Assembly (NCBI RefSeq): GCF_029626235.1
Contig: NZ_JARUBO010000005.1
Span: forward strand, 6,544,001 to 6,608,000
Reading direction: 5' to 3'
Length of the DNA stretch: 64,000 nt
Origin: Micromonospora sp. WMMD1120
GTDB taxonomy: Bacteria > Actinomycetota > Actinomycetes > Mycobacteriales > Micromonosporaceae
Part shown: positions 1 to 60,849 of the stretch, in pieces
Layout: every line of letters starts with the position of its first letter
Position numbering within the stretch: position 1 is the stretch's first letter
The notes under the pieces: generated by a model
What the model was told of the DNA's origin: nothing
Seen by the model: only the letters and a program-made list of their open reading frames with translations
Databases searched by the model: none
Translations under genes and position numbers: made by a program

Positions 1-5103
<5,103 letters not shown>

Positions 5104-5134
5104 GCTTTCTCCACTCGGTCGCGTGGTGGCCGGA

Positions 5135-45287: not shown

Positions 45288-47657
45288 TCACCGTCGCCTC
45301 CGCTCCGCCAGCAGCCGCTCCGCGACGCGTTCCAGCTCACCGGCGTCGACCTTGCCGTTCGCCGTCAGCGGGATCCGCTCCACGAACGCCCAGAGCGCGG
45401 GCACCGCGTACCTCGGCAGGGAGCGGGCGAGGTGCGCGCGAAGCGTGACCTCCAGTCGCGGCTCGCTGTCGGCGACCACGCCGGCCAGGAGCCGCCGGGA
45501 CGACGCGCCGTCACCCACCGCCACCACCACGGCGTCGCGCACCGAGGGGTGCTCCAGCAGCCGGGCCACGATCTCCTCGGTCTCGATCCGGTAGCCGCGG
45601 ACCTTGACCTGGTGATCCGTCCGGCCCAGGAAGCGCAGCACGCCCTGGGCGTCCAGGCGCACCAGGTCGCCGGTCCGGTACATGCGCTCACCGGTGTCCG
45701 GGGCGGGCAACCCGAACGCGGCCCGGGTCTGCTCCGGCGCGCCCAGGTAGTCGATGGCCAGGCCCGCCCCGGTCACGTACAGCTCGCCGATCCCGCCCGG
45801 TGGCACCTCGCCGCCCGCCTGGTCCAGGATCAGCAGGCCGGTGCCGGCGATGGCCCGTCCGATCGGCAGCGGTGACTGCACCGCGTCCGGATCGTCGAGG
45901 TGGTGGACCGTACTGAACGTCGTGTTCTCGGTCGGCCCGTAGCCGCAGGTCACGCGGATACCGGGGAAACGCTCCAGCAGCCGCCGCGCCTGCTCGGGCG
46001 GCACCACGTCGCCTCCGGTCAACACCTGCCGGACACCGGCGAAGGCGTGCGGGGCGAGGTCGACCATCAACCGGAACAAGCCGGCGGTCAGCCAGAGCAC
46101 TGTGACGCCCCGCTCCTCGATGAACGTCGCCAGTTCGCTCGACGACGGCAGCTCGTGCGGAATCACCTCGACGGCGCCTCCGTTGGCCAGCGGCGCGAAC
46201 AGCTCCAGCGTCGAGGCGTCGAACGCCAACGGCGCGAACCGGAGCATCCGCTCGCCCGGACCGCAGCGCACATGGGAGGGATCGCGGACGAGCCGGACCA
46301 CGGCCCGGTGGGGTATCCGGACGGCCTTGGGGGTGCCGGTGGAGCCCGACGTGAACGTGATGTAGGCCGGCCGGTCCGGATCCACCGGCGGCAGCGGAGG
46401 CACCGTGCGGCCCACGTCGTCGGATGCGAGCGGGTCCGGCGCGATCACCGTGGCGCACGGCGAGGGGCACAGCCGGCCGACCCGGTCCACCAGGGTCGGA
46501 TCGCCGACGATCGCACGGGGATCCACCGCGGAGAACATCCGTCGGAGCCGATCGTCGGGCGCCTCGTTGTCGAAGGCCACGTACGTGCCGCCGCAGCGCA
46601 GGACGGCCAGGACCGACACCAGTTCCCGGGCCGACCGGGAGTGGGCGATGAGCACGTTGACGCCCGGACCGACGCCGGCCTGCGCCAACCTGGCCGCCAG
46701 GCGCTCCACGGCGGACACCAGGTCCGCGTAGCTCAGCGGCCGGGTCAGTTCCGGGCCGTCCACGGCCTCGGTGTCGCCGTGGCGCAGGGCGACCGCCGCC
46801 ACCATCCGCCACACGTCGTCGGACGAGTCGGAGAGCGGCCCGTTGCGGACGGCCGCGATCCGCGCGCGTTGCGTGCGCGAGATGGTCCGCACCGCATCCA
46901 GGGGCTCGTTCACCGAGTCGAGGAGTTCGACGAGCGTGGCGTCGAGCGAGTCCGCCAGGGCGCCGGCCTCCGCGGGCAGGAGCGCGGCTGTCGCGTACTC
47001 CAGCGCCAGCTCCGCCCGGGGTCCCCAGCGCCGCAGGACCAGCGCGGCGTCGAGCGGGAAATCACCGGTGGGGTGGCTGTCGTGGTCGACCACCTCGACC
47101 GGCCCGGCGGAGAACCGTTCCGGCCCGTCCTCGGCCCGCGCGTCGACCACGAACTGGAGCAACGCGGCCCGCCGGGGGTCGTCGGGTACGTCCAGCCGGG
47201 CCCGCAGCTCGTCCACCGGCACACCGGCGGTCTCGGCCGCGGCCAGCTCGGACGCGATCCCGCCGAGGTACGCGCGGACGGACGTCCCCTCCGCCAGCGC
47301 GCAGCGGACCGGAACCACACGCCCGTCGGCGAGGGTGTGGCCGAGGAGGAGATCCCGCACCCCGGCGCGCCGGGCGAGCACCAGGCTCCACGCCGCCAGC
47401 AGGACCGTCGTACGACTGACCGCGCGGTCCGCCGCCAACCGGGCGCAGGCGGACGCGGCGGGGTCGGACAGGGCGAACGCCAGCCGTGCTCCGGCGTGGT
47501 CCCGGGTGGCGGGACGGGTCAGGTCGGACGGGAGTTCGAGCACCGTCGGAGCGCCGGTGAGCTGGGCGACCCGGGCCGCGACAAGCGCCTCCGACGGCTC
47601 CCGGGTGACCGGGTCCGGGGTCCCCTCGCCGGGTGGGGTTCTAGTCGGAACTGTCAC
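45288..47657 (-). CDS. NRPS half-condensation-adenylation protein lacking a carrier domain
   Basis: 789 residues from GTG 47657, which has GGGGGAG about 8 nt upstream and overlaps the end of the preceding gene by 17 bp; the longer frame to 47732 lies inside that gene. Residues about 1-280 match only the C-terminal lobe of a condensation domain: the N-terminal lobe with HHxxxDG is missing. The A domain follows, with TFTSGSTGTPKA, FDASTLELF, GYGPTEN, YRTGDL and a terminal NGK lysine. Aligning to GrsA by eye gives the specificity code D-A-L-W-L-G-G-T-F-K, of the valine/branched-aliphatic type. The protein ends after the A domain with no PCP. It is the last gene of the operon and must load a carrier in trans, the PCP-C protein at 53999-55597 being the obvious candidate. 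Confidence 0.9.
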   Translation of the reverse strand: MTVPTRTPPGEGTPDPVTREPSEALVAARVAQLTGAPTVLELPSDLTRPATRDHAGARLAFALSDPAASACARLAADRAVSRTTVLLAAWSLVLARRAGVRDLLLGHTLADGRVVPVRCALAEGTSVRAYLGGIASELAAAETAGVPVDELRARLDVPDDPRRAALLQFVVDARAEDGPERFSAGPVEVVDHDSHPTGDFPLDAALVLRRWGPRAELALEYATAALLPAEAGALADSLDATLVELLDSVNEPLDAVRTISRTQRARIAAVRNGPLSDSSDDVWRMVAAVALRHGDTEAVDGPELTRPLSYADLVSAVERLAARLAQAGVGPGVNVLIAHSRSARELVSVLAVLRCGGTYVAFDNEAPDDRLRRMFSAVDPRAIVGDPTLVDRVGRLCPSPCATVIAPDPLASDDVGRTVPPLPPVDPDRPAYITFTSGSTGTPKAVRIPHRAVVRLVRDPSHVRCGPGERMLRFAPLAFDASTLELFAPLANGGAVEVIPHELPSSSELATFIEERGVTVLWLTAGLFRLMVDLAPHAFAGVRQVLTGGDVVPPEQARRLLERFPGIRVTCGYGPTENTTFSTVHHLDDPDAVQSPLPIGRAIAGTGLLILDQAGGEVPPGGIGELYVTGAGLAIDYLGAPEQTRAAFGLPAPDTGERMYRTGDLVRLDAQGVLRFLGRTDHQVKVRGYRIETEEIVARLLEHPSVRDAVVVAVGDGASSRRLLAGVVADSEPRLEVTLRAHLARSLPRYAVPALWAFVERIPLTANGKVDAGELERVAERLLAERRRR

Positions 47658-50600
47658 CGGAGCGCTCCCCCGTCGATCCACCGTCGGTCTCCGTCTCGGC
47701 CAGCACGGCCGCGAGCCGTTGCGCGAGGACACCCACCTGCGGCGGCGCCATCATCGTGTGGTGGTCGCCGGGCACCTGCTCGACCCGAATCCCCGCCCCG
47801 TAGATCTGGTCCCAGCCCAGCGTCTCGCCCGGGTTGTCCCGTACCGCCTCGTCCATCGCCAGGAAGAGCGTGACCGGGTGGTCCGCCGAGGGTGTGCTCG
47901 GCGGGCGCGCGTCCCGGATGTACCTCATGGCCGCGCTGACGTTCGTCCGGTAGACGGTGAGCATCTGCCGCAGCTCGGCCTGGCCCGCGTCGGCGGGCAG
48001 CAGGTCCCTGGCGCGTACCAGCCGGACCAGGTGGTCCAGTCGGGCCTCCGCGTCCAGCGACTCGAGTTCACCGGCGGGGATGTCCAGTTGGTAGTGCCAG
48101 GCGAAGCGCTGGATAAGTTCGACGTCGCTGACGTCGGCGTGCGGGTCGGCGTCCGGCGTCTCGTCCGCGACGAGTTCGTCGAGCTGGGCGTCGACCGGCG
48201 CGTCACTGTCGAAGAGGACGAGCTGCGCCACCTCGTCGCCGGCGAGCCGCAACTGCCGCGCGACCTCGTGCGCGATGATCCCGCCGAGGCACCAGCCACC
48301 GATCCAGTACGGCCCCCGCGGCTGGTGGGCCTTGATCTCCCGCACGTACCCGGCGGCCATCTCGGTCAGTTCGGTAGGGCTGCTGCCGCCGGGGTAGAGC
48401 CCCGGCGACTGGAGGCCGATGAACGGGCGGTCGGTCCCGGCGGCACGCGCCAACGGCAGGTAGCTCAGCACGCCACCACCACCGGCGTGGACGCAGAAGA
48501 ACGGCGCCAGCGACCCGGCGCCCTGTAGCGGCACGGCGGAGCGGAACTGGCGCTCCCGCCCCTCGGCCCGCAGCAGTCGGGCCATCGCCTCGATCGAGCT
48601 GGCGTTGACCATCGCCGACACGGGCAGTTTGACGCCGGTCGCCTTGCGGATGTCAGCGATGAGGCGGATCGCCTTCAGCGAGTTCCCGCCGACCTCGAAG
48701 AAGTCCTCGGTGACACCGACGGTCCTGCCCAGGGACCGCGTCCAGAGGTGGGAGAGCAGCAGTTCGGTGCCGTCCCGGGGTGGGGTCTCGCCGCGCTGGC
48801 CGAGTTGCCGGACGTCGGCGGCGGCCCGGACCAGGGCCGACCGGTCCAGCTTGCCGTTGCCGCTCAACGGGAACGCGTCGAGGGCGACGAAGGCCGCCGG
48901 CCGCATGTGCTGCGGCAGGCGCGCCGCGGCGAACTGGTGCAGCTCGCTGTCGTGCAGGTCGCCGGCGCCGGCGACGAACGCGATCAACCGCTGCTGTCCG
49001 GCGTCGTCGGGAGTCACCACCGCGACGCAGTCCTTCACGTCCGGATGCGTGCGCACCACCGACTCGATCTCGCGCAACTCGACCCGGTAGCCGGCGATCT
49101 TCACCTGGTCGTCGTCGCGCCCGACGAATTCGAGGTCGCCGTTGGGCAGCCTGCGCACCAGGTCGCCCGTCCGGTAGCGGCGAGCGCCGTGCTCCGGCGA
49201 CAGCGGGTCCGGGATGAACCGCTCGGCGGTGAGGTCCGGCAGGCCGAGGTAGCCCGCCGCGACGCCCGGTCCGCCGATCACCAGCTCGCCGGGCACCCAG
49301 TGCGGAACCTCGCCCAACGCCCGGTCCACGACCTGGACGGTCGCCGCGCCCAGCGGGCTGCCGATCGGCACCGAGCCCGACCTCGGGTCCAGCTCCGCCA
49401 GCCGGACCCGGTACGCGGTGGCGCCCACGGTCGTCTCGGTCGGGCCGTAGTGGTTGACGATCTCGCAGCCGTCGGCCAGTTCGCCGAGCCGGGCGGCCAG
49501 GTCGCGGCGCAGCAGCTCGCCACCGATGACGAGGGTCCGCCTGGGGATCAGGCCGGCGGGCGTCGCGGTCGACTGCAGCAGCGCCGTCAGGTGCGACGGG
49601 GTGATCTTGACGACGTCGACCGCCTCGCGCTGGAGGTAGTCCGCCAGCTCGTCACCGCTGCGCAGCACGTCGTCGTCCACCAGGTGCAGCGTCCCGCCGG
49701 TGCACAACGCCGCGAAGAGGGCCGTGTATCCCAGGTCCGCGCTGAGGCTCGACACGTGGGCGTACCGGAGGCCGGGCGGCAGGTCGAGACGCTCGGTGAT
49801 CGCGTCGACGTAACCGGCGAGCTGCCGGTGCCCCACCAGCACGCCCTTCGGCCGGCCCGTCGTTCCCGACGTGTACAGCACGTAGGCCAGGCCGGCGGGG
49901 TCGGGTCCGGCGTCCCGGGTCGCCACCGGGGCGTCGCCGTCTCGCACCTCGTCGACGACGATCGGCGCCGCGCGCAGGGACCCGGTCAGGGAGGCGTGCT
50001 CGGGCTCGGTCACGATGATCTCGACACCGCTGTCGTCGAGCATCAGCCGCAGGCGCTCGGATGGCACCGTCGGGTCCAGCGGCACGTACGCCGCACCGGT
50101 CTCCAGCACCGCAAGCATCGCGGCCAGGGCCTCCGTGCGGCGTCCGAAGAGGACACCGACCGGGCGGCCCGGTCCGGCGCCGCGGGCGACCAGCTCGTCG
50201 GCGAGCGTCCGGGCGGTCGCGTGCAGCGCGCCGTAGCTGTGCCGGCCCCGGCTGTCGACCACCGCGATGCTCGACGGTTGCGCGCGCGCGTGCCGGGCGA
50301 ACCGTTCGTGCACCGGGATCGGCGCGGTGTCGGCGGGCGGCGGGGCGGCGGTGACCTTCGGCTGGCCCGCGGGGAGCAGGGGCACCTCCTCGACGGGCGT
50401 CTCCGGGGCGGACATCCAGGTCCGCAGCACCGACGCGAGACCGCTGGCGAGGTCGGCCACGTCGGCCCTGTCGAAGCTGTCCGTCCGGTAGCGCAGCACC
50501 GCCCGCGGTGCCGCGTCGTCCTGCTCGACAGCCAGTTCGAGATCGGTCTCCAGCACGCCGTCGACACGGCTCAGCACGAACTCGACCCCGTCGGCGGCGA

Positions 50601-51639
50601 CGGCCGGTGGCCGTACCCGGTGGCTGAAGCCGATCAACGTCCGCTCCTGCGCGGTGGCGTCGTCGGCGAACCAGACCTCGGGCGAGATCGCGTACTGCAA
50701 CTCCTCGGCCGCGTCGTCCCGGGCCGTGACGTGGCCGACCAGCGACCGCAGGGACCCCGACGGGTCGTCGTCGAGGCGTACCGGCGCGAACCTGGCCAGC
50801 GGGCCGATCGCGTCCGCCAGGCCGTCCTCCTGCCGCCCGGACCGCGACGTCAGCACCACCAGCGGTCGGCCGGGCACGTACCGACCGAGCAGCGCCGCCC
50901 AGGCCGCGAGCAACAGCCCGCGCAGCGTACGGCCGTCGCGCCCGACAGTCTCGCGCAGGCCGTCGGGCAGCGGCACCGCCACCGCGTCCTGGCCGGCGGG
51001 CCGGGACGCGCGGTCGGCGCGCGGGTGCTGGAACGGCAGCCACGGCAGCTCGCCGAGAATGTCGGTGAGCGACTGCCAGTGCCGCCTGGCCTCGGCGTCC
51101 GCGTCACCGAGCTGCTGGTTGAACCACTCCGCCAGGTCGGCGTACTGCAACGGCTCCTCGTCGGACGGTGCCGCGCCGCGATAGAGCCCGGCCAGGCGCT
51201 CGGCGAGCAGCGCGACGCTCTCCGCGTCGGCGTTCAGGGTCGGCAGCCGCAGGAGGATGGTGTGCCGCCCGTCGTCCCGGTTGACGAGCCCGACCCGCAG
51301 CGGCGGACCGGCGCTGTCCATCGGCTCCGCGGCACGCGCGCGCCAGTCGTCCTCGGTGACCTCCTCGACGGCGACCGGGGCCGCCGCCCGGATCCGTTGC
51401 AGCGGCACGTCGAGGCCGGCGACCCGCTGGTAGTCGGTGCGCAGGATCTCGTACCGCTCGACCAGGGCCTCCACCGCCGCGCGCAGGCGGTCCCGGTCGA
51501 GCCGGCCGCGAACGGTGATCTCGCCCCGGATCGACGGGCAGCGGTCGCCCGCGCCGGTCCGCACGACCTGGGTGAGCCAGGCGTGCCGCTGCTGCGGCGA
51601 CAGCGGAAACAGTTCCGTGGCCGCTTCCGTGCTGGTCAT
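47641..51639 (-). CDS. NRPS C*-A(Asp)-PCP-TE with degenerate C domain and Cys thioesterase
   Basis: 1332 residues from ATG 51639, with GGAGGGGG upstream and an ATGA overlap with the dioxygenase gene. Residues 10-440 are a full-length condensation-like domain, but at 132-141 LPTLNADAES stands where HHxxxDG should be, so it cannot catalyse condensation in the usual way. The A domain (about 460-960; YTSGTTGRPKG, NHYGPTET, YRTGDL, NGK) gives the code D-L-T-K-V-G-H-V-G-K by eye alignment to GrsA, which matches the aspartate codes known from surfactin-type synthetases. The PCP has VGGNSLKAI. The thioesterase (about 1050-1332) has GGWCLGG, so its nucleophile is Cys1117 (codon 48289-48291), and a C-terminal catalytic His (DHHTMM). 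Likely role: load Asp, present it for hydroxylation, and release the final product. Confidence 0.93.
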   Translation of the reverse strand: MTSTEAATELFPLSPQQRHAWLTQVVRTGAGDRCPSIRGEITVRGRLDRDRLRAAVEALVERYEILRTDYQRVAGLDVPLQRIRAAAPVAVEEVTEDDWRARAAEPMDSAGPPLRVGLVNRDDGRHTILLRLPTLNADAESVALLAERLAGLYRGAAPSDEEPLQYADLAEWFNQQLGDADAEARRHWQSLTDILGELPWLPFQHPRADRASRPAGQDAVAVPLPDGLRETVGRDGRTLRGLLLAAWAALLGRYVPGRPLVVLTSRSGRQEDGLADAIGPLARFAPVRLDDDPSGSLRSLVGHVTARDDAAEELQYAISPEVWFADDATAQERTLIGFSHRVRPPAVAADGVEFVLSRVDGVLETDLELAVEQDDAAPRAVLRYRTDSFDRADVADLASGLASVLRTWMSAPETPVEEVPLLPAGQPKVTAAPPPADTAPIPVHERFARHARAQPSSIAVVDSRGRHSYGALHATARTLADELVARGAGPGRPVGVLFGRRTEALAAMLAVLETGAAYVPLDPTVPSERLRLMLDDSGVEIIVTEPEHASLTGSLRAAPIVVDEVRDGDAPVATRDAGPDPAGLAYVLYTSGTTGRPKGVLVGHRQLAGYVDAITERLDLPPGLRYAHVSSLSADLGYTALFAALCTGGTLHLVDDDVLRSGDELADYLQREAVDVVKITPSHLTALLQSTATPAGLIPRRTLVIGGELLRRDLAARLGELADGCEIVNHYGPTETTVGATAYRVRLAELDPRSGSVPIGSPLGAATVQVVDRALGEVPHWVPGELVIGGPGVAAGYLGLPDLTAERFIPDPLSPEHGARRYRTGDLVRRLPNGDLEFVGRDDDQVKIAGYRVELREIESVVRTHPDVKDCVAVVTPDDAGQQRLIAFVAGAGDLHDSELHQFAAARLPQHMRPAAFVALDAFPLSGNGKLDRSALVRAAADVRQLGQRGETPPRDGTELLLSHLWTRSLGRTVGVTEDFFEVGGNSLKAIRLIADIRKATGVKLPVSAMVNASSIEAMARLLRAEGRERQFRSAVPLQGAGSLAPFFCVHAGGGGVLSYLPLARAAGTDRPFIGLQSPGLYPGGSSPTELTEMAAGYVREIKAHQPRGPYWIGGWCLGGIIAHEVARQLRLAGDEVAQLVLFDSDAPVDAQLDELVADETPDADPHADVSDVELIQRFAWHYQLDIPAGELESLDAEARLDHLVRLVRARDLLPADAGQAELRQMLTVYRTNVSAAMRYIRDARPPSTPSADHPVTLFLAMDEAVRDNPGETLGWDQIYGAGIRVEQVPGDHHTMMAPPQVGVLAQRLAAVLAETETDGGSTGERSGDSSD

Positions 51640-52685
51640 CGGGCCCCCTCCAGGGCGCTCCACGCGCCGGACATGGCGACGAGCACCTTCCGGGGACCCT
51701 GGTACGGGTTCCGGCCATGGCTCATCAGCATGTTGTCCACGAGCATCACGTCACCGGTCTGCCACGGGGTCGCCACGGTCTCCGCCGCGAACGCGGCCCG
51801 GATCTCGGTGAACGCCTCGTCCTCGATCACGCTGCCGTCGCCGTACAGGGCGTTGCGCGGGAGCTGGTCGGGGGCGAAGGAGGCCAGCAGGTCCTCCCGG
51901 ACGGCGGCGGGCAGGCTGGAGGTGTGGAAGAGGTGGGCCTGGTTGAACCAGGCCACCTCGTGGGTACGGGGATGCTCGGCGACCACCTGGCAGACCTGCC
52001 GGGTACGCAGGCCGCCGTTCGGCAGCCACTCCAGGTCGATCTCGTTGGTGGCGCAGAACCGCTCCACCGTCGCCCGGTCGTCGGTCTCGAACACCTGCTG
52101 CCACGGCAGGTCGACGCCGCCGCCGTAGTTGCGCACGTACATGATCCCGGCGCGCTCGAACCGCTCGCGCACCGCGGACGGGATGCGGGCCAGCACCCGT
52201 CGGCTGTCCGCCAGCGGCGTCTCCCCGCCACTGGTGGCGTTGAGCTGGCAGAAGAACCACAGTCGCAGCGGCCAGTCGCGGGCGTAGGCCATCTCGTTGT
52301 GCTGCGGGATCGTCGCCTCCGGCGGGTACTCGCTGGAGGTGTAGACGCCCTTCGACTCCTTGGTGCGCGGGGTGGACCCGTACAGGTAGTCGAGCAGCCG
52401 CTCGTCGCCGCCCTGCCCCGCCACGTTGGCGAAGTCGGCCGCCGTGGCGACCTGGAACCTCCGGAAGATCACCGCTCCGGCGGCGAGCAGGTGACCGTCG
52501 ACGGTCTCCTGGCTCTCCCGCAGCCATGCGGCCAGGTCGAGGCCGGCCGCCCGGGCCTCGATGACGACGGGCGCGCCGGGCCGGTCCGCACTCGTGATGC
52601 GGACCAGGCCGTCGGCGCCGGGTTCGACGCTCCGGCGGCGGATGGACCGCACCGAGCGTCCCTGCGCTGGAGTCGAAGCTCCCAT
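51636..52685 (-). CDS. SyrP/TauD-type Fe(II)/2-oxoglutarate dioxygenase, probable aspartyl beta-hydroxylase
   Basis: 349 residues from ATG 52685, with GGAG 9 nt upstream. TauD/clavaminate-synthase fold: iron ligands His129 and Glu131 in QHNEMAYARDWP (HxE/D), distal His323 and the 2-oxoglutarate-binding Arg332 in SHGRNPYQGPRK. The HNE signature and overall layout resemble SyrP, which hydroxylates aspartate bound to the carrier domain of syringomycin synthetase. It overlaps by ATGA with the Asp-specific NRPS gene downstream, which supports the same reaction: Asp-S-PCP to beta-hydroxy-Asp-S-PCP. The family assignment is seen; the substrate is inferred from code and context. Soluble, cytoplasmic. 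Confidence 0.9.
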   Translation of the reverse strand: MGASTPAQGRSVRSIRRRSVEPGADGLVRITSADRPGAPVVIEARAAGLDLAAWLRESQETVDGHLLAAGAVIFRRFQVATAADFANVAGQGGDERLLDYLYGSTPRTKESKGVYTSSEYPPEATIPQHNEMAYARDWPLRLWFFCQLNATSGGETPLADSRRVLARIPSAVRERFERAGIMYVRNYGGGVDLPWQQVFETDDRATVERFCATNEIDLEWLPNGGLRTRQVCQVVAEHPRTHEVAWFNQAHLFHTSSLPAAVREDLLASFAPDQLPRNALYGDGSVIEDEAFTEIRAAFAAETVATPWQTGDVMLVDNMLMSHGRNPYQGPRKVLVAMSGAWSALEGAR

Positions 52686-52697
52686 TGGTCGTCTCCT

Positions 52698-54002
52698 TCA
52701 GCGTTCTGTGTGCAGTGCGTGGTCGTCGTCGGGTTGGTCCTGGTCCTCGGTGATGCGCAGACCGCGGATCGGGGACAGCGCCAGCAGGATGGTCGGTACC
52801 AGCAGCGCGGCGCCCGAGAGCAGGACGACAGCCCGCGAGCTCGTCGCCTCGGCGGCGACCCCGCCGATCAGCGATCCCAGCGGGATGGCGCCCCAGATCA
52901 GGAAGCGCATCGTGGCGTTCGTACGGCCGAGCAGCGGGGCGGGGGTCACCGCCTGCCGGATGGTCACCGCCGCCACGTTGAAGATCGGGATGCCGCTCAC
53001 GAACAGCAGGTAACCGCCGCCGGCCAGGACCAGACCGAGCCCCATCCCGGCCGGCGCCACCCCCACCAGGAGGACGCCGGCCGCCATCGTGACGCTGCCG
53101 GCGAGGAAGCCACCGCCGATGCCGGTGCGGTTCGATATCCAGTCGGCGGCGAGTGACCCCAGCACCCCGCCGACGCCGCCCAGGCTCAGCAGCACACCGA
53201 CGAACACGGCGCCCAGCCGCAGGTCGTCGACGATGTAGAGGTACTGGATCGCCAGGAACGCGTAGACGCAGAGGTTGGTGAGGGCGGCGACCCCGGCGTT
53301 CCACCGCAGCACGTCCGACCGCCAGACGAAGGCGACACCCTCCTTGATCTCCTGCCAGGCGGACCGCGTCCCGCCCTCTGTGGTCTCCTGTCCGCTCCCG
53401 TCCTTCGGCAGCCCGGACAGCATGGCCCCGGAGACGAGAAACGACAGCGCGTCCACGACCAGGGCGTAGGGCGCCGTGATGAGCTGGACCAGCGCCCCAC
53501 CCAGGCTGGGCCCCACCACCTCGCTGCCGGCGCGCGTCGCTTCGAGCTTGGCGTTCGCCTCGGTCAACTGCTCGCGGGGCACCAACGCGGGCATGATCGA
53601 CAGCGCGGCCACGTCGGACAGGACGGTCAACGTGCCGAGCAGGAACGCCACCACGTAGAGCTGCGTCACCGTCATCCAGTCCAGCGCGGCCGCGATCGGG
53701 ATGGTCAGCACGAGCGGCGCGCGCAGGACGGAGGCGACAATCAGCAGCCGCCGGCGGGACCAGCGGTCGACGAGGACGCCCGCCATCAGGGCGAAGAGCA
53801 GGAACGGCACCCGCTCGGCCGCGACGAGCAGACCCAGTTGGACGGGTGAGGCGTCCAGCACGAGCACGGCGGTGAGCGGGATGGCGACCATGCTGACCTG
53901 GAAGCCGGTCTGCGCCACGGCCTGCGAGCCGACGTAGGTGGCATAGCCACGACGTCGCCAGAGCGACGGCCGCGACGGTGTGGCCGTGCCGCTCCCGGTC
54001 AT
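52698..54002 (-). CDS. MFS efflux transporter, EntS-like (MFS_3)
   Basis: 434 residues from ATG 54002, overlapping the PCP-C gene by ATGA; the longer open frame upstream is inside that gene. Hydrophobic segments fit 10-12 membrane spans, with a basic loop DRWSRRR after span 2 (MFS motif A region) and a charged central loop around residues 200-225. It resembles the enterobactin-exporter EntS group and macrolide-efflux MFS proteins. In the middle of the NRPS operon it is most likely the exporter, and possibly self-resistance, for the product. The C-terminus is a charged tail (EDQDQPDDD). It is followed 12 bp later by the dioxygenase gene. Confidence 0.9.
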   Translation of the reverse strand: MTGSGTATPSRPSLWRRRGYATYVGSQAVAQTGFQVSMVAIPLTAVLVLDASPVQLGLLVAAERVPFLLFALMAGVLVDRWSRRRLLIVASVLRAPLVLTIPIAAALDWMTVTQLYVVAFLLGTLTVLSDVAALSIMPALVPREQLTEANAKLEATRAGSEVVGPSLGGALVQLITAPYALVVDALSFLVSGAMLSGLPKDGSGQETTEGGTRSAWQEIKEGVAFVWRSDVLRWNAGVAALTNLCVYAFLAIQYLYIVDDLRLGAVFVGVLLSLGGVGGVLGSLAADWISNRTGIGGGFLAGSVTMAAGVLLVGVAPAGMGLGLVLAGGGYLLFVSGIPIFNVAAVTIRQAVTPAPLLGRTNATMRFLIWGAIPLGSLIGGVAAEATSSRAVVLLSGAALLVPTILLALSPIRGLRITEDQDQPDDDHALHTER

Positions 54003-55597
54003 CGTGCGCGATCTCCCTCGATCGGCGTCGCCCGCTCGTCCGGGTGGTGCACCAGCCGGTCGAGCGCGCCGACCATCCACTCGGCCAGCTCGGTGGCCCG
54101 CCGCCGCGGATGCCGCACGGTGTCGACGGTCACGTCGAGCTGGAGCCCGAAGGCGCGGGGAGCGTAGATGCCCTCGACGCGGATCGGCACGCTGGTGCTG
54201 TCCCGCCAGTCCTCCTCCGCCTCGATGAGCCCCTCGGCGAGCAGCTCGTCGATGTTGTGGAAGTTCACGAAGTTCAGCGCCACGTCGAAGGGTCGCCGGC
54301 CGAGCAACTCGATGACCTCGGAGTACGGGAACCGCCGTTGGGGCAACAGTTCGCGCTCCGCCTCGAACGCCTGCCGCGCGAGGTCCCGCCAGGTGGCCCC
54401 GGTCGAGGTCAGGCGCACCGGCAGGTGGTTGAGGAACAGCCCGAGAGTCAGGTCCGCTCCCGGTTGCTCGGGCCGTCCGCTCATCGACAACCCGGCCACC
54501 TGCGCGGTTCCGAACGCGGCCTCGACCGCGGTGTAGTAGGCCGCCACCACCAGGCTCTTGATCGGCAGGCCCCACGCCGTCGAGCGCTCGGCCAGAGCGT
54601 CGACCACGGGCCGGGGCGCGAGCAGGGAGACCTTGTGGGGTACCGGCGGAGCGGCCCGGCGGGTCTGCCGCCGCGCGCCGGGCGGCCCCTCCCGGAACCG
54701 GGCGAAGAACTGCCGCTGCCCCTCGTCGGCGAGCGCCTCGCGCTCCAGCCGGACGAACTCGGAGAACGGTGCCGGCGACGCCAGCTCGATCCGCTCGCCC
54801 CGCAGCAGCGCCCGGTAGGTCTTGATCAGCTCAAGCGCCAGGACGGACTCGCTCCACCCGTCGAGGATCGCGTGGTGGAACGCGTACGTGAGGCGGAAGC
54901 GTTCCGGCCCGGTCGGCGCGGCGTGGGCGCGGAGCAGCGGAACACCGTCGAGGTCGAAGGGGCGGGCGAGCTTCTCCATCGTCGCGGCACGACGGGCCGC
55001 CACCTCCTCGTCGGGCAGCCCACGGAGGTCGTCCAACTCCAGCTCGACGGTCGCCTGCTCCTCGACGAGCTGCAACGGCTCGCTGTAGCCGTCCAGGTCG
55101 AACCGGGTGCGCAGGATCGGGTGGCGGCGCACCACCTCGTCCAGCGCCTGGCGGAGCACCTCGACGTCGAGGCGCAGCAGGACCTCGCGGGAGACCACGT
55201 CGACGTAGAGAGCGCCTCCGCTGGCCGCGTTCTCGTAGATCAGCCCGAGCTGTAGCCGCGTCATCGGGTAGGCAGCGCTCACCCCGGCGGGGAGTTGCTC
55301 CCGATCGGCCTGGTCGAGCAGGGCCGCTGTCGGCGCGGCGTCGCCGCCGACGTCCGCCGTCAGGTTGCGGCAGGAGCCGCGCAGGTCAGGTCGTTGGAAC
55401 AGGTCGACGAGTTTCAACGGCAGCCCGCGCTGCTCGGCCGCCGAGATGATCTCGATGGCGAGCAACGAGTCACCGCCGAGCGCGAAGAAGTCGTCGTCCG
55501 GCCCCACGTCACTGACGTGCAGCACCGACTCCCAGATCTCGGCCATCACCGACTCGACGGCGTTCAACGTCTTCCCGGTGTCCGTCGGCGTGCTCAT
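53999..55597 (-). CDS. NRPS PCP-C didomain protein
   Basis: 532 residues from ATG 55597, ATGA-coupled to the P450 upstream and the MFS gene downstream. A carrier domain occupies residues about 10-85, with phosphopantetheine Ser44 in FFALGGDSLLAI. A condensation domain follows from about 108, with intact HHAILDG at 241-247 and the N-terminal motif YPMTRLQLGLIYE. There is no A domain, so the carrier must be loaded by another protein; the half-C-A protein of the same operon lacks a PCP and fits. The C domain would then pass the chain to the Asp carrier of the C*-A-PCP-TE protein, whose own C domain lacks the catalytic His. This partner scheme is inferred from domain accounting. Confidence 0.92.
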   Translation of the reverse strand: MSTPTDTGKTLNAVESVMAEIWESVLHVSDVGPDDDFFALGGDSLLAIEIISAAEQRGLPLKLVDLFQRPDLRGSCRNLTADVGGDAAPTAALLDQADREQLPAGVSAAYPMTRLQLGLIYENAASGGALYVDVVSREVLLRLDVEVLRQALDEVVRRHPILRTRFDLDGYSEPLQLVEEQATVELELDDLRGLPDEEVAARRAATMEKLARPFDLDGVPLLRAHAAPTGPERFRLTYAFHHAILDGWSESVLALELIKTYRALLRGERIELASPAPFSEFVRLEREALADEGQRQFFARFREGPPGARRQTRRAAPPVPHKVSLLAPRPVVDALAERSTAWGLPIKSLVVAAYYTAVEAAFGTAQVAGLSMSGRPEQPGADLTLGLFLNHLPVRLTSTGATWRDLARQAFEAERELLPQRRFPYSEVIELLGRRPFDVALNFVNFHNIDELLAEGLIEAEEDWRDSTSVPIRVEGIYAPRAFGLQLDVTVDTVRHPRRRATELAEWMVGALDRLVHHPDERATPIEGDRAR

Positions 55598-56892
55598 CGC
55601 ACCTCACCCTCCTCAGCCGGATGGGGCGGCCGGGTGTCCCGCGCCGCCGTGAACCGCACCGGCAGCCTGTTGAAGCCGCTCAGAAAATTGGAGTAGAGCC
55701 GCTTCGGCTCGCCGATCAGCTCCATCGCGTCGGTCGTCCGCACCAGGGCGGCGACCAGCGCGCCCAGCTCGATCCGTGCCAGCTGGGCGCCCAGACAGAA
55801 GTGAGGGCCGATCGCGAACGTCAGGTGGCGGTTGGGGGCGCGGGAGAGCCGCAACCGGGTGGGCTCGTCGAACTGCCGAGGGTCGAAGTTGGCCGAGGAG
55901 TTCCAGACGGTGACGATGTCGTCCCGGCCGATGCGCCGGCCGCCGAGGACGGTGTCCTCCGTGGCGACCCGCCCGGCGTGCAACGTGGGAGTGGTCCAGC
56001 GCAGGAACTCCTCGACAGCGGTCTCGACCGACACCTCGCCGGCGCGCAGCCGGGCCCACTCGTCGGGCCACCGGGTCAGGGCGTGCACCGTCCCGATCAT
56101 CGACAGCCGGGTCGTCTCGTCCCCGCCGAGCAGCAGGCTGTAGGCGTTGTAGAGCAACTCCTGGTCGGTCAGCGCGATGGGCGACCTCGTCATCTGGATC
56201 AACAGGCCGAGGATGTCGTCGCCCGGGGTGTCCCGCCGCGATCGGGCCAACCTGGCGAAGTAGAGCAGGATCTCGTTGCGCGCCAGCCGCGCCTCGATCT
56301 CGGTGCCGCCCGGCCCCTCGGAGGCGAGCGCCAGCTTGCTCTGCGTGAGCAGCAACTCGCGGTCCTGCTCGGGAACCATGAGCAGGTCGCAGATCACCGC
56401 GAGCGGGATGTGCGGCGCCACCTCGTGACCCAGGTCGCAGTCCCCGCGCCGCACCGCCTCGCGCACCAGGCGCAGTGTGGCGCCGCGTACCTGCTCGGCC
56501 AGGCCGGCCAGGGCGCGAGGGGTCAGCGCGCGCAGCAGCACCCGCCTGATCTGCTGGTGCCGGGGGCCGTCGGAGACCGGCAGCATCTTGCCCCCGGCCG
56601 GGTCGCCACCGGTCAGGAGCGTGGCCAGGACGTTGCCGCGCGCGGACGTGTAGACGTCGCTGTTGCGGTAGACCTCGACCGCCGCGGCGTAGCTGCTGAC
56701 CACCCAGAAACCACCATCGGCGGTGGGGTGCCAGGCCACCGGCTGCTCCTCCCGCAGCAGGCCCCACACCTCGCCCAGGTCACGCTCGGCATGGACCTCG
56801 GGTCGGGTCAGGTCGATGTCCGCGAGTGGCCCCGAGCCGAACTCCAGCGGCGGACGTCCGGTACGCGTCTCGCCGGCGACCTCGTTGGTCAT
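55594..56892 (-). CDS. Cytochrome P450, possibly acting on carrier-bound amino acid
   Basis: 432 residues from ATG 56892, with ATGA overlaps on both sides. Haem loop FAIGPHFCLG gives Cys366, the I-helix has GGDETTR in place of the common AGxxTT, and the K-helix has EEFLR. The gene lies between the stand-alone C domain and the PCP-C didomain. P450s embedded in NRPS operons often hydroxylate PCP-bound amino acids, so it may act on the residue loaded onto the PCP-C protein, but the sequence alone cannot separate this from tailoring of the polyketide. No ferredoxin gene is adjacent. Confidence 0.92.
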   Translation of the reverse strand: MTNEVAGETRTGRPPLEFGSGPLADIDLTRPEVHAERDLGEVWGLLREEQPVAWHPTADGGFWVVSSYAAAVEVYRNSDVYTSARGNVLATLLTGGDPAGGKMLPVSDGPRHQQIRRVLLRALTPRALAGLAEQVRGATLRLVREAVRRGDCDLGHEVAPHIPLAVICDLLMVPEQDRELLLTQSKLALASEGPGGTEIEARLARNEILLYFARLARSRRDTPGDDILGLLIQMTRSPIALTDQELLYNAYSLLLGGDETTRLSMIGTVHALTRWPDEWARLRAGEVSVETAVEEFLRWTTPTLHAGRVATEDTVLGGRRIGRDDIVTVWNSSANFDPRQFDEPTRLRLSRAPNRHLTFAIGPHFCLGAQLARIELGALVAALVRTTDAMELIGEPKRLYSNFLSGFNRLPVRFTAARDTRPPHPAEEGEVR

Positions 56893-58250
56893 CCTCGCCC
56901 CGTCCCGGAGAGCGCCGCGTCACCGTCGCCGGCCCGGCCGGGCTCGACCCCCGGCGCCTCGATCCCCTCGTCTCGCGTCACACCGGCGTCGATGGTGGCC
57001 GTGAACTGCTCGCTCAGGCGCCTGATCGTGGCCGGGGTGAACAGCTCGACCCGATAGTTGATCTGAATCTCGAGACCGTCGTCCTCGAAGACGGAGAACG
57101 TCAGGTCGAGCGGCGCGGCGGTCTGCGGCGGCGCCACCGGCCGTACCGCGAGGTCCCCGATGCGGTATTCGAAGATCGACTCGGGTTGGTGGACGAAGGC
57201 CGTCTGGAGGAATGCCGTCTGGTGCGGCCGGCGCGGAGGCCGCACCGCCGACAGCAACATGTCGAAGGGCAGGTCCTGGTGGTCCTGCGCGTCGAGCACG
57301 GTCCGCCGCACCCGCCGCACGACCGCCCGGAAGCCCGGCCCGCCGCTCAACTCCGTCCGCAGCACCAGGTTGTTGACGAAGAAGCCGATCAGCCCGTCCA
57401 CACCCGGCTCGCTGCGATCGGCGACCGACGTCGTCACCACGATGTCCGTCGCACCGGTCTCCCTCGACAACAGCACCTTGTACGCCGCCAGCAGCACCAT
57501 GAACACCGTGGCGTTCTGTTCCCGCGCCACCGCCCGTACGCCGTCCAGCACCGTGCGGTCGAGGGAGAAGCCGAACGTGCTGCCGTCGCGGGACGCCACG
57601 CCCGACGGATCCCTGTCGTACGGCAACGTCAGGTAGGCCGGCGCCCCGGACAGCCGCTCGCGCCAGTAGCCCTCCAGCTCCGACCGTCGCTCCTGGGTCA
57701 GCGACTCGCGCTGCCGGACCGCGAAGTCCGCGTACTGCATGGGCAACGCGCCCAGCGGTGGCGGATCTCCCGCCGCCAGCGCCGGGTACAACGCCACCAG
57801 CTCGTCCTGGAGCACCATGCCGGACCAGCCGTCCGTCACGATGTGGTGCGCGTTGAGGAGCAACAGGCCGCTGTCGTCGGCCTCCAGGATCAGCCGAGCA
57901 CGGAACAACGGCCCCCGGACCAGATCGAACGGGCGCTCCAGCTCCGCCCGGACGGCCTGGTCGACAGCGCCGGCGCCGGCGCCACTGCAGTCCACCACCG
58001 TTAGGTCGACGCCGCTCGGCTCGTTCACCACCTGCGTCGGCACCCCGCGGTCGGTCACGAACGTCGTGCGCAACACCTCGTGCCGCTCGACCACGGCGTC
58101 CAGGCACGCCCGCAGCACGTCCGCCCGCATCGCGCCACGCCACCGCAGCAACAACGGGGTGCTGTACGCGAGGCTCGGCGCGACCTGCTCCGCGAGCCAC
58201 AACCGTCGTTGCCCGAACGACAGCGGCATCCGTCGCTGGGCGGGGCTCAT
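56889..58250 (-). CDS. Stand-alone NRPS condensation domain
   Basis: 453 residues, one complete C domain and nothing else. Start at ATG 58250 is set by the ATGA overlap with the A-PCP gene; the longer frame lies inside that gene. N-terminal motif PLSFGQRRLWL is typical of LCL-type C domains. The active site HHIVTDG at 135-141 is intact, and FFVNNLVLR and DLPFDMLL are present. As a free domain it could join the polyketide acyl chain, or the first aminoacyl unit, to the amino acid held by the A-PCP protein encoded just upstream. No docking segment is obvious at either end; a charged tail (GVEPGRAGDGD) follows the domain. Confidence 0.92.
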   Translation of the reverse strand: MSPAQRRMPLSFGQRRLWLAEQVAPSLAYSTPLLLRWRGAMRADVLRACLDAVVERHEVLRTTFVTDRGVPTQVVNEPSGVDLTVVDCSGAGAGAVDQAVRAELERPFDLVRGPLFRARLILEADDSGLLLLNAHHIVTDGWSGMVLQDELVALYPALAAGDPPPLGALPMQYADFAVRQRESLTQERRSELEGYWRERLSGAPAYLTLPYDRDPSGVASRDGSTFGFSLDRTVLDGVRAVAREQNATVFMVLLAAYKVLLSRETGATDIVVTTSVADRSEPGVDGLIGFFVNNLVLRTELSGGPGFRAVVRRVRRTVLDAQDHQDLPFDMLLSAVRPPRRPHQTAFLQTAFVHQPESIFEYRIGDLAVRPVAPPQTAAPLDLTFSVFEDDGLEIQINYRVELFTPATIRRLSEQFTATIDAGVTRDEGIEAPGVEPGRAGDGDAALSGTGRG

Positions 58251-60064
58251 GACGTGCTCCGCAGGCGTTCGACGTACTGGACCAGGGCGGCCGGGGTGCG
58301 GTTCTCCAGCACGTCCCGGAACCGGATGGTGACCCCGAAGTGCTCGCTCACCCGGGCGGCTATCCGCATGCCGGACAGCGAGTTGCCGCCGAGTTCGAGG
58401 AGGTCGGCGTTCGGCCCGCACTCGTCGATCCCGAGGGCCTGGCACCAGATCTTGGTCATCTCGGCCGCGTGCCCGTCGTCGGCGGGCTCGCCGGTGACGA
58501 CGCCACCGGCGGCCGCGGCACGGGTCGTCAGGGCGTCCACGTCGATCTTGCCCGAGGAGAGCAGTGGCATCGCGTCGAGGACGACGACGCTCGCCGGCAT
58601 CATGAACGCGGGAACCCGCCCGGCCAGATGCTCCCTGACCTGCTCGACGTCGTACGAAGCATCGGCCAGCTCCAGGAAGGCGACGAGGCCGGCGTGACCC
58701 GAGGCCTCCCGCCGGGACACGACACAGGCCCGATGGACGGCCGGGTGCGCGGTGAGGACGCCCTCGATCTCGCTGGGGTTGACCCGGAAGCCATTGATCT
58801 TGACCTGGCGGTCGACGCGTCCCACGAAGTGCAGCCGCCCGGCCTCGTCGACCATGCCGAGGTCCCCGGTGCGGTACCGCCGGGCCCCGGACCGGTCCGG
58901 TATGAACGCCGCGGCGGTGCCGTCCGGGTCGTTCCAGTAGCCGGCGCCCACCCCGGGACCGCCGATGACCAGCTCACCCACCGACCCCGTGGGGACCGGC
59001 CGCAGCTCGTCGTCGAGCACCTGCGTGGTCACCGTCGGACACGGGCCACCCAGGGGCATCGACGGGAACCGGTCCGCCGGCACACTCCGGTCGTCGCGGT
59101 AGATCGTCGAGGTCACACAGGTCTCGGTCAGGCCGTAGCAGTTCCACAGGTCCACCTCGGCGGGCACCGCGTCGCGCCACACCGCCAGGTCGTCCGCCGA
59201 CGCCCGCTCCCCGCCGATCAGCACGCTCCGTACGCAGCCCGGCAGCCGCTCCGAGCCGCCCCGGAACTCCAGGCACAGCTCCCGCCAGTACGCGGTGGGC
59301 AGGTAGAGGTGCGAGATCGACTGCTCGGCGAGTTCGCGCAGGAAGTGCGGAACCCCGTAGTCGGCCTCGTCGGTGCAGATCGTCAACGGTGTGCCGCAGA
59401 ACAGCGGAAGGATCATCTCCTCGATGCTCGAATCCCAACCCAGCGCGCCGAAGTGCAGGGCGTGGTGCTCCGGGCCCGGGGCGTAGGGAGACGCGACGGC
59501 GGCGACGAGGTTGTAGAGCGACGCGTGCTCGATCATGACGCCCTTGGGTTGGCCGCTCGACCCGCTGGTGTAGACGAGACAGGCGAGGTCGTGCGGCGCC
59601 GGCCGACCCGGCGTCGCGGCGCTCGCGGGCTCGGACCGGTCGGCGGCGGCCTGTTCGACGTCGAGCACCGGGCAGTCGGGCCACGCCGCGCGCAGGCTCG
59701 CGGCGTTGCGACTGTCGGTCAGGATGGCGCCGGGCCGCACCTGCTCCAGGATGGTGCGCAGGCGTTGCTCCGAGATCGCCTCGTTCAGCGGCACGTACAC
59801 GCCGCCGGCACGCCACACCCCGAGCATCGCCACCACCGCCCACTCGCTGCGGGACGTGACGACGACGACGGACGGGCGGTCGCCCGGCACGGCGACCGCG
59901 GTCAACGCGCGCTGCGTGTTGCGCACCAGCTCGTCGAGTTGCCGATGGGTCAACCAGCGCCGCCGTGACCTGACCGCCAGGGCGTCGGGCGTCGCCGCCG
60001 CGCGCGCGGCTATCGCCTCGTGGACGAGGCTGTCCGACAGGTCGGCGTGCACAGCGTCGGGCAT
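58247..60064 (-). CDS. NRPS A-PCP didomain protein, unusual specificity code
   Basis: 605 residues from ATG 60064 with GGAGGCGA upstream. The A domain shows YTSGSSGQPKG, NCYGLTET (Leu replaces the usual Pro), YRTGDL and a terminal SSGK lysine. The PCP has Ser562 in LELGGNSLSGM. The GrsA-aligned code by eye is D-S-E-Y-L-G-C-V-T-K, which I cannot match to a known substrate; the Glu at the 239 position would suit a basic or guanidino side chain. The preceding amidinotransferase and GNAT genes make a guanidino-bearing amino acid a reasonable guess. There is no C domain of its own; the stand-alone C domain gene overlaps its stop by ATGA. Confidence 0.92.
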   Translation of the reverse strand: MPDAVHADLSDSLVHEAIAARAAATPDALAVRSRRRWLTHRQLDELVRNTQRALTAVAVPGDRPSVVVVTSRSEWAVVAMLGVWRAGGVYVPLNEAISEQRLRTILEQVRPGAILTDSRNAASLRAAWPDCPVLDVEQAAADRSEPASAATPGRPAPHDLACLVYTSGSSGQPKGVMIEHASLYNLVAAVASPYAPGPEHHALHFGALGWDSSIEEMILPLFCGTPLTICTDEADYGVPHFLRELAEQSISHLYLPTAYWRELCLEFRGGSERLPGCVRSVLIGGERASADDLAVWRDAVPAEVDLWNCYGLTETCVTSTIYRDDRSVPADRFPSMPLGGPCPTVTTQVLDDELRPVPTGSVGELVIGGPGVGAGYWNDPDGTAAAFIPDRSGARRYRTGDLGMVDEAGRLHFVGRVDRQVKINGFRVNPSEIEGVLTAHPAVHRACVVSRREASGHAGLVAFLELADASYDVEQVREHLAGRVPAFMMPASVVVLDAMPLLSSGKIDVDALTTRAAAAGGVVTGEPADDGHAAEMTKIWCQALGIDECGPNADLLELGGNSLSGMRIAARVSEHFGVTIRFRDVLENRTPAALVQYVERLRSTS

Positions 60065-60090
60065 CGAAGTCGCCTCCGCGGGAGAAGGGG

Positions 60091-60849
60091 TCAGGACAGT
60101 GGCTGGTGCACCCAGACGTTGGGTTCGACGTACGCGGCCGAGTCGTGGGTGAGATCGCAGTGCACCGGCACCATCGCGCCGGGAACGATGACCGGGCCGT
60201 CGGTGTCGAACGGCAACCCCGTCCAGCGTCGCCACTGGGCGAGCGAGCCGACCACGACCATCGACGCCGGGGCGATACCGACGATCGACGCGCCGAGCCT
60301 GGCGTGCGCGCGCAGCAGCGGGTCCGCCGGCAGGCCCTCGGGTGTCAGCCGGGCCACGTACTCGGCGAGCGTCATCTCCGGGACCGCCGTCTTGCCGGGC
60401 GGCCGTACCGGGGCGACGAAGTGACGCATCCCCTTGGCGCGGGCGATGGCGTGGAACCGGCGCAGGATCTCGGCGCCCAGTCCGGAGCTGCGCATGTCGG
60501 GGCGGATGTTGACCTCCAGGCCGCAGAGCGCGTCGCCGCCGTAGCCGGCGAAACGGGCGATGCGGCCCAGGATGATCGCCGCGTCCCAGCCGGTGTCGGG
60601 CAGCCCGGCCGGCGGCTCCTCGGCGAGCCCGATCGGCACCGAGTAACCCCGCGCGATCACCTCGTCGGGGCTGTCGGCCGGCGTGGCGATCACCGTGTAG
60701 TCGGTGTAGTGCTCGGCCGCGTCCAGGTAGAAGCCCTGCCCGACCTGGTCGTGCCGCATGAACTCCGGCCAGCCGCCGTCGAGCGTGTCCACCTTCTGCG
60801 CGAGGTGGGGCCGTTCGGTGAGCGTGGTGATCTCGATGCCCTCGATCAC
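60091..60849 (-). CDS. GNAT-family N-acyltransferase-like protein
   Basis: 252 residues from GTG 60849. No strong ribosome site is visible, so the start is uncertain; the next ATG lies about 30 residues in. The central segment NIRPDMRSSGLGAEIL matches GNAT motif A, with the pyrophosphate-binding R-x-x-G-x-G pattern of acyl-CoA binding. The C-terminal half (HARLGASIVGIAPASM, then GSLAQWRRWTGLPF) resembles a subgroup of actinomycete GNAT proteins of unknown substrate. It lies between the amidinotransferase (88 bp upstream) and the A-PCP gene (26 bp downstream), so it may acylate or otherwise modify the same small-molecule building block. Function beyond the fold is not established. Confidence 0.8.
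   Translation of the reverse strand: MIEGIEITTLTERPHLAQKVDTLDGGWPEFMRHDQVGQGFYLDAAEHYTDYTVIATPADSPDEVIARGYSVPIGLAEEPPAGLPDTGWDAAIILGRIARFAGYGGDALCGLEVNIRPDMRSSGLGAEILRRFHAIARAKGMRHFVAPVRPPGKTAVPEMTLAEYVARLTPEGLPADPLLRAHARLGASIVGIAPASMVVVGSLAQWRRWTGLPFDTDGPVIVPGAMVPVHCDLTHDSAAYVEPNVWVHQPLS

What the first reader, a model, noticed from the sequence alone, without database searches (positions are those of the whole stretch)
47641..52685. Aspartate module with SyrP-like hydroxylase, degenerate C domain and Cys thioesterase: possible beta-lactone-forming terminus
Seen: an A domain with an Asp-type code, an adjacent coupled SyrP-like dioxygenase, a C-like domain without HHxxxDG, and a thioesterase with GGWCLGG. 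Known: SyrP beta-hydroxylates carrier-bound Asp; condensation-like interface domains lacking the active site recruit Asp hydroxylases in siderophore synthetases; Cys thioesterases close four-membered rings in obafluorin (beta-lactone) and sulfazecin (beta-lactam). Inference: beta-hydroxy-Asp is formed on this module and the Cys thioesterase may release it as a beta-lactone, which would be unusual on a polyketide-peptide hybrid.
Basis: partly seen in the sequence, partly recalled or inferred. Interest (0 to 1): 0.9.

Follow-up and report, generated by a model that had tools for sequence, protein, structure and literature searches.

The report
Aspartate-hydroxylating peptide module with cysteine thioesterase
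This is the last station of a small bacterial peptide assembly line that probably adds a hydroxyl group to aspartate and then releases the peptide with an unusual cysteine enzyme; whether the release closes a strained four-atom ring is still open.

Summary
In detail: 47641-52685 (- strand) encodes a TauD/SyrP-like dioxygenase coupled by an ATGA overlap to a C*-A-PCP-TE protein with A code DLTKVGHVGK (Asp), a C-like domain without HHxxxDG, and a Cys TE nucleophile. It is a real family: the window and the 15 next-best TE homologues all have the Cys and an Asp-type code, and 15 of 15 assessable lack HHxxxDG. Such inactive C-like domains fall on one side of one tree branch, apart from 42 active ones, as expected of hydroxylase-recruiting interface domains.

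Best reading: a split NRPS making a small, probably tripeptide, product with C-terminal beta-hydroxy-Asp. A beta-lactone remains possible (about 0.3), not shown.

The parts
51636..52685 (-). TauD/SyrP-like Fe(II)/2-oxoglutarate dioxygenase (349 aa), proposed Asp beta-hydroxylase; iron ligands H129, E131, H323
   Evidence: Pfam TauD 9.7e-41; H129, E131, H323, R332 invariant in the window plus 25 homologues (26 of 26; 25 of the 120 listed were aligned); 91% identical in A. aureus; dN/dS about 0.18
47641..51639 (-). C*-A(Asp)-PCP-TE terminal NRPS module (1332 aa)
   Evidence: Pfam domains; start by ATGA overlap; 78% identical orthologue in A. aureus
50368..51609 (-). C* domain: condensation-like, no HHxxxDG (PTLNADA), interface-like
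   Evidence: inactive domains on one side of one branch, support 100/98
48850..50301 (-). A domain, code DLTKVGHVGK (Asp)
   Evidence: PMC12283262 and PMC10391617
48571..48747 (-). PCP domain
   Evidence: Pfam PF00550
47734..48504 (-). Thioesterase: Cys codon 48289-48291, position-I Asp 48208-48210, His 47761-47763
45288..47732 (-). Half-C (C-lobe only)-A protein, code DALWLGGTFK (Val-like, recalled), no PCP; ORF limits, true start uncertain
   Evidence: Pfam C profile positions 201-455 only, A domain; same code in A. aureus
53999..55597 (-). PCP-C protein with intact HHAILDG; proposed donor of the Val-loaded PCP and of the condensation onto Asp-PCP in trans
   Evidence: Pfam; motif; 84% in A. 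aureus; close homologues on same-length contigs as the TE homologues P0005, P0007, P0008
55594..56892 (-). Cytochrome P450, proposed to act on a PCP-bound residue
   Evidence: NCBIfam P450 models, all below their cut-offs; 84% in A. aureus
56889..58250 (-). Stand-alone C domain, intact HHIVTDG
   Evidence: Pfam 6.4e-90; motif; ATGA start
58247..60235 (-). A-PCP protein, code DSEYLGCVTK (substrate unknown); ORF limits, true start uncertain
   Evidence: Pfam; code conserved in A. aureus
52698..54002 (-). MFS exporter
   Evidence: Pfam MFS_3/MFS_1; TIGR00900 below its cut-off; 85% in A. aureus
60091..60849 (-). GNAT-like protein (weak match to CurA GNAT-like domain)
   Evidence: 2ree E 2.7e-5 over residues 110-194; no Pfam or NCBIfam hit; 87% in A. 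aureus
60938..62038 (-). L-Arg:X amidinotransferase (AGAT family)
   Evidence: SxtG E 1.9e-123, HsvA 1.9e-121, L-arginine:glycine amidinotransferase 1.3e-113; 92% in A. aureus

Best explanation
A ten-gene split NRPS pathway (62038 to 45288, - strand) makes a small peptide, most simply a tripeptide X-Val-(beta-OH-Asp). SHOWN by sequence: three A domains, three PCPs, two C domains with the catalytic motif, one TE, an amidinotransferase, a P450, a GNAT-like protein and an MFS pump; five neighbouring gene pairs overlap as ATGA. INFERRED: A-PCP loads X (possibly a guanidino or basic residue); half-C-A loads Val onto the PCP of the PCP-C protein; the free C joins X to Val; the C domain of PCP-C joins X-Val to the Asp on the last PCP in trans, because that module's own C* is dead; C* instead docks the dioxygenase, which beta-hydroxylates Asp on that PCP. 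The Cys-TE then takes the chain as a thioester and releases it. Release mode: beta-lactone closure about 0.3; hydrolysis, capture by an amine, or another ring together about 0.7.
For: Block conserved gene for gene, 73-92% identical, in A. aureus, with unrelated genes on both sides. Domain census 3 A, 3 PCP, 2 active C, 1 TE. ATGA overlaps. Asp code, 10 of 16 DLTKVGHVGK and 6 of 16 the near variant DLSKIGHVGK. Dioxygenase shares a contig with the module in 10 of 16 members, the window counted: 2 read directly, 8 by same organism name and contig length, distance unknown. Inactive C-like domains, 15 of 15, lie on one side of a branch (100/98) against 42 active ones, with purifying selection. TE triad Cys, position-I Asp and His 16 of 16 each; AB3403 nearest by sequence and structure.
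Against: No product is known and no enzyme was assayed. The dioxygenase was not seen for 6 of 16 members (P0003-P0007, P0009) in the 120 rows listed; 90% clustering may hide it. Related dioxygenases also sit beside NRPSs whose C domains have intact HHxxxDG (L073, L074) and beside a module with a non-Asp-type A motif (L072), so neither C* nor Asp is obligatory for this enzyme family. X is unassigned, and the Val call rests on a recalled code. PCP-C homologues on contigs of P0009-P0016 are not among the 120 rows, so the upstream line probably differs there.
Confidence: 0.62

Rival explanations
1. One reading: the Cys-TE closes the beta-hydroxyl of beta-OH-Asp onto its own thioester and releases a beta-lactone (an oxetanone carrying a carboxylate), as ObiF does with another residue.
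For: Cys is invariant in 16 of 16 members that also carry an Asp-type A code, and the dioxygenase shares the contig in 10 of 16. ObiF1 C1146S shows dominant hydrolysis, so Cys can favour ring closure (PMC6668435 passage). The predicted product is small, like sulfazecin and obafluorin (PMC11298585 passage).
Against: The position-I Asp is retained in 16 of 16 and position II is D/E/K/R; in ObiF1 relocating the Asp to position I failed to restore activity (PMC11298585 passage). No ObiF1/SulM sequence match at E up to 10, while a type II TE control matches both. AB3403, a Cys-TE of the ordinary triad type, is the nearest relative.
Confidence: 0.3
2. Hydrolytic release of a linear peptide with a C-terminal beta-OH-Asp (possibly metal-binding).
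For: The ordinary position-I triad and a place near ordinary Ser type I TEs in the tree, weakly supported. Hydrolysis, with macrocyclisation, is the usual outcome of such TEs (PMC11298585 passage).
Against: A Cys nucleophile fixed in 16 of 16 members is unexpected if hydrolysis suffices. No siderophore uptake gene was found among the 17 flank proteins of the window and A. aureus blocks scanned with Pfam.
Confidence: 0.35
3. Aminolytic or macrocyclic release: the Cys thioester is captured by an amine, for example a guanidinylated amine made by the amidinotransferase, or by a side chain of X.
For: Cys thioesters favour amine capture (general chemistry, recalled). The amidinotransferase is close to HsvA, which acts on polyamines (recalled).
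Against: No direct evidence of the acceptor; the amidino group may instead be on X.
Confidence: 0.3
4. The module is the terminus of a polyketide-peptide hybrid made with the PKS at 41585 to 1 and beyond.
For: The PKS lies next to it on the same strand.
Against: The PKS starts with a KSQ-type domain (DTGQSSSL; name recalled); the NRPS has its own TE; A. aureus has the block without a PKS within the flanks read; a + strand P450 and a + strand regulator lie between.
Confidence: 0.05

Closest known systems
AB3403 (4zxh) C-A-PCP-TE of Acinetobacter baumannii
   Different: The TE tree puts AB3403 with L096 (99/99) and apart from this family (89/82), but a single origin of the Cys is not ruled out. 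No coupled dioxygenase or Asp code is known for it (recalled: Gly); described as uncharacterized in PMC11298585 (passage)
ObiF1 (obafluorin beta-lactone TE, 6n8e)
   Same: Cys nucleophile; beta-hydroxy-alpha-amino acid as the final residue
SulM TE (sulfazecin beta-lactam, 8w2c/8w2d)
   Same: Cys nucleophile; small tripeptide line
   Different: SulM has Gln-Cys-Asn and position-II Asp; here Trp-Cys-Leu and position-I Asp
Interface domain plus IbetaH_Asp hydroxylase pairs of siderophore NRPSs (Reitz et al. 2019, not held; recalled and cited through other papers)
   Same: An inactive C-superfamily domain beside an Asp module and a TauD-type beta-hydroxylase
Tistrellabactin MobH/MobD
   Same: Identical A code DLTKVGHVGK, Asp hydroxylated by a stand-alone hydroxylase (PMC10391617 passages)
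   Different: A TbetaH_Asp system in a siderophore line; the passages seen do not mention an inactive C domain

Membership tests
ObiF/SulM strained-ring-forming TEs | Cys nucleophile | tested here: met
   GGWCLGG; 16 of 16, the window counted
ObiF/SulM strained-ring-forming TEs | Catalytic Asp at position II after beta7, none at position I | tested here: not met
   Asp at position I, right after strand 104-110 of the model, 16 of 16; position II D/E/K/R
ObiF/SulM strained-ring-forming TEs | Sequence kinship with ObiF1/SulM and type II TEs | tested here: not met
   6n8e, 8w2c, 8w2d absent among 40 chains at E up to 10, though the type II TE RifR appears at 2e-4; type II TE control finds 6n8e at 9.9e-8, 8w2d at 0.019 and 8w2c at 0.020. 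Single-sequence searches only; no joint tree
ObiF/SulM strained-ring-forming TEs | SulM Gln-Cys-Asn motif (beta-lactam criterion) | tested here: not met
   Trp-Cys-Leu
ObiF/SulM strained-ring-forming TEs | Forms a four-membered ring in vitro | not testable with these tools
   needs enzyme assay
NRPS interface domains of beta-hydroxylase modules | Condensation superfamily fold | tested here: met
   PF00668 2.6e-30
NRPS interface domains of beta-hydroxylase modules | Lacks HHxxxDG | tested here: met
   15 of 15 assessable family members, the window counted; P0005 lacks that region
NRPS interface domains of beta-hydroxylase modules | Clade separate from catalytic C domains | tested here: met
   15 inactive versus 42 with HHxxx(D/E)G, one branch 100/98, midpoint root
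NRPS interface domains of beta-hydroxylase modules | Falls with the published interface domains | not tested
   reference sequences not available; Reitz et al. not held
SyrP/AspH-type NRPS Asp beta-hydroxylases | TauD fold with HxD/E...H iron site | tested here: met
   PF02668; H129-x-E131...H323 invariant in 26 of 26 aligned
SyrP/AspH-type NRPS Asp beta-hydroxylases | Partner module activates Asp | tested here: met
   by code only, DLTKVGHVGK
SyrP/AspH-type NRPS Asp beta-hydroxylases | Groups with SyrP or the siderophore Asp hydroxylases in a tree | not tested
   no reference sequences at hand; nearest solved structures are At3g21360 (3.7e-39) and 9yut
SyrP/AspH-type NRPS Asp beta-hydroxylases | Hydroxylates Asp-S-PCP | not testable with these tools
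   needs assay
PKS-NRPS hybrid assembly line | PKS and NRPS exchange one chain | tested here: not met
   KSQ-type PKS start, NRPS block with own TE, block without PKS in A. aureus flanks; judged from sequence only

The most novel reading that the evidence does not exclude
A rare actinobacterial TE family has become beta-lactone-forming independently of ObiF/SulM, keeping the ordinary position-I triad, and releases peptides ending in a beta-hydroxy-Asp beta-lactone, a warhead for which these searches found no paper. Hydroxylation by a dioxygenase docked on an inactive C domain and ring closure by the Cys-TE would be one built-in unit.
Probability: 0.27. Interest if true: 0.82.

Novelty: new variant of a known kind. 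Interest (0 to 1): 0.55.

Why it matters
The two ring-closing TEs compared in PMC11298585 (ObiF1 and SulM) combine a Cys nucleophile with a relocated triad Asp, so it is unclear which feature matters. This family has the Cys, and probably a beta-hydroxylated Asp, without the relocation, so one assay would separate the two. It also links an inactive C domain group to a dioxygenase in a split NRPS line without siderophore genes seen nearby, and points to a compact ten-gene pathway, practical to express, for an unknown, probably guanidine-bearing peptide.

Tried and rejected
Plasmid search: matches below 60% identity only, no cluster pursued. Genome-contig scan: 21 loci; 18 were checked for TE motifs (L024, L027, L029 were not), and only L009 has GGWCLGG. 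TE searches in genomes: 2 of 394 at 1e-30 (the window, and G659 at 35%), 16 of 300 at 1e-30, with the window 667, A. aureus 533, G208 173.5 and the rest 109-144 bits, 0 of 249 in G368's unnamed family at 1e-40, which by its own note shows nothing, 1 of 392 at 1e-42 (G1237, 38%). Literature: of the 16 papers found, the 14 listed hold no 'hydroxyaspartate'; searches listed no paper that by title or abstract start treats this cluster or a beta-OH-Asp beta-lactone (open-licence library, listings only). PMC8698034 and PMC13126170 were looked into by passages without use. Siderophore reading set aside: no uptake gene among the flank proteins scanned. TE tree: 47 rows; the rest of 126 inputs gave no TE stretch over 150 aa. 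Its script misread the nucleophile of P0010, P0054 and L097; with these corrected, the Cys label needs 3 changes on the best tree but strongly supported branches force only 1, so my first reading that Cys arose at least twice is withdrawn. C tree: 8 of the 15 family C* domains with that region, the 48 best other matches over 290 positions, and the C of PCP-C; L040, L042, L049 and L072 were not in it. SulM does not appear among the 50 entries shown; no weight is put on that.
Full report
What is there. The reported region (47641-52685, - strand) encodes a TauD-family dioxygenase and a C-A-PCP-TE NRPS protein. Their reading frames overlap as ATGA, so the two are probably translationally coupled and the NRPS starts at 51639. 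The dioxygenase keeps H129-x-E131...H323 and R332 in the window plus the 25 best of 120 listed homologues, 26 of 26. The A domain reads DLTKVGHVGK. That code is listed for Asp/Asn (PMC12283262, passages seen) and belongs to the module that yields L-erythro-beta-OH-Asp in tistrellabactin (PMC10391617, passages and Table 1 seen). The C-like domain reads PTLNADA where HHxxxDG should be. The TE reads GGWCLGG.

It is a family. The TE search found 328 proteins and listed 120. The 16 best, counting the window's own protein (P0001), come from Actinoplanes, Saccharothrix, Lentzea, Streptomyces, Nonomuraea, Sphaerisporangium and unnamed sources; all carry GGWCLGG, while the next ones mostly have Ser (80 rows looked at). 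In these 16, the A code is DLTKVGHVGK in 10 and the near variant DLSKIGHVGK in 6; the catalytic His of HHxxxDG is missing in 15 of 15 (P0005 lacks that region); Cys, position-I Asp and His are each 16 of 16. A dioxygenase lies on the same contig in 10 of 16: two read directly (window, A. aureus) and eight by equal organism name and contig length between the two searches (P0008/P0122, P0010/P0143, P0011/P0166, P0012/P0138, P0013/P0135, P0014/P0141, P0015/P0129, P0016/P0126), with the distance unknown. It was not seen for P0003-P0007 and P0009. The family is rare: in 300 genomes of the window's family only the window and A. aureus score high, with G208 a distant third (667, 533 and 173.5 bits).

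The inactive C domain. A tree of 57 C-like domains puts all 15 inactive ones on one side of a single branch (100/98) against 42 with HHxxx(D/E)G. The 15 include domains from loci fetched through the dioxygenase only (L070, L075, and five same-genus loci with tandem dioxygenases). Co-location with the dioxygenase is therefore partly by construction; L073 and L074 have such a dioxygenase beside active C domains. Between the window and A. aureus dN and dS are 0.149 and 0.397 for C*, 0.110 and 0.335 for A, 0.098 and 0.381 for TE. So C* is kept by selection although it lacks the usual catalytic His. The published interface domain set (Reitz et al. 2019) was not held, so membership of that exact clade is untested.

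The surroundings: not a hybrid. In Actinoplanes aureus the ten genes from the amidinotransferase to the half-C-A gene occur in the same order at 73-92% identity. About 13.4 kb upstream and 9.1 kb downstream of that block were read. None of the window's PKS proteins finds a match there or in L009 (tblastn, 1e-8), and the flank proteins scanned are ordinary: regulators, a sigma factor, an AMP-binding enzyme, a methyltransferase, lectin- and carbohydrate-binding proteins and others. In the window the PKS is adjacent, but its first protein begins with a KSQ-type domain (DTGQSSSL), so it should prime itself, and a + strand P450 and a + strand regulator lie between. My motif scan did not find the loading carrier domain of that protein. 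The block holds three A domains, three PCPs, two C domains with intact motifs and one TE. The simplest count is a tripeptide: X (A-PCP, code DSEYLGCVTK, unassigned) - Val (half-C-A, code DALWLGGTFK, Val by recall) - Asp. Because the Asp module's own C domain looks dead, the C domain of the PCP-C protein should serve it in trans. This is inference. The amidinotransferase is closest to SxtG and HsvA, so a guanidine is likely somewhere in the product.

What follows. Beta-hydroxylation of Asp on this module is the best reading, with the caveat that related dioxygenases serve other modules. The Cys-TE is not a member of the ObiF/SulM kind by its defining triad or by kinship. That lowers the claim that it is one of them; it does not show that it cannot work like one. 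The Cys is fixed in a family whose members share an Asp-type code and, where seen, a hydroxylase, and an ObiF1 Cys-to-Ser mutant shows dominant hydrolysis (PMC6668435 passage). I put beta-lactone release at about 0.3, hydrolysis at 0.35, and amine capture or another ring at about 0.3. These are judgements, not measurements.

Novelty. The parts are known kinds; the combination (dead C domain, coupled hydroxylase, ordinary-triad Cys-TE, split tripeptide line with an amidinotransferase) was not found in print (search listings only, open-licence library). PMC12971057 (passages) notes several unexplored clades of NRPS amino-acid beta-hydroxylases, so unstudied relatives are to be expected. I rate it a new variant of a known kind.

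Noticed in passing
L070 (G208; contig length as Actinoplanes oblitus) 5912-9811: A C*-A(Asp)-PCP-TE relative, 38% identical, has Gly instead of Ser/Cys in the TE (GWGLGG), with the dioxygenase next to it and aminotransferase-, Trp-dioxygenase- and TauD-like genes around it; a TE-dead sister of this module.
   Followed up: partly
L072 6911-14300; also L036, L044-L047: Several genomes of the window's genus carry two related dioxygenase genes in tandem beside an NRPS with an inactive C-like domain; in L072 the A domain motif is not of the Asp type.
   Followed up: partly
L096 (G1237) 4921-14471: A locus in a genome of the L013 (Streptomyces) genus has a C-A-PCP-TE with GGWCFGG grouping with AB3403 (99/99), with an acyl-CoA dehydrogenase, a small carrier protein (by eye) and an MMPL transporter beside it: an actinobacterial counterpart of the AB3403 module.
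   Followed up: partly
45288-47732: A half condensation domain (C-lobe only) fused to a Val-type A domain without PCP, kept in A. aureus (72% identical over the half C); its role is unclear.
   Followed up: partly
60091-60849: Small GNAT-like protein with only a weak match to the CurA GNAT-like domain and no Pfam hit; it could acylate the peptide, load a starter, or give self-protection.
   Followed up: no
-5148 to 41585 (window coordinates; runs into L005): KSQ-type type I PKS of four large proteins, followed by a protein read by eye as carrier plus thioester reductase; apparently a separate pathway next to the NRPS block.
   Followed up: partly
63078-64283, + strand: Cupin_8-type (JmjC-like) protein divergent from the amidinotransferase gene; no match in the A. 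aureus flanks read (tblastn 1e-8).
   Followed up: partly
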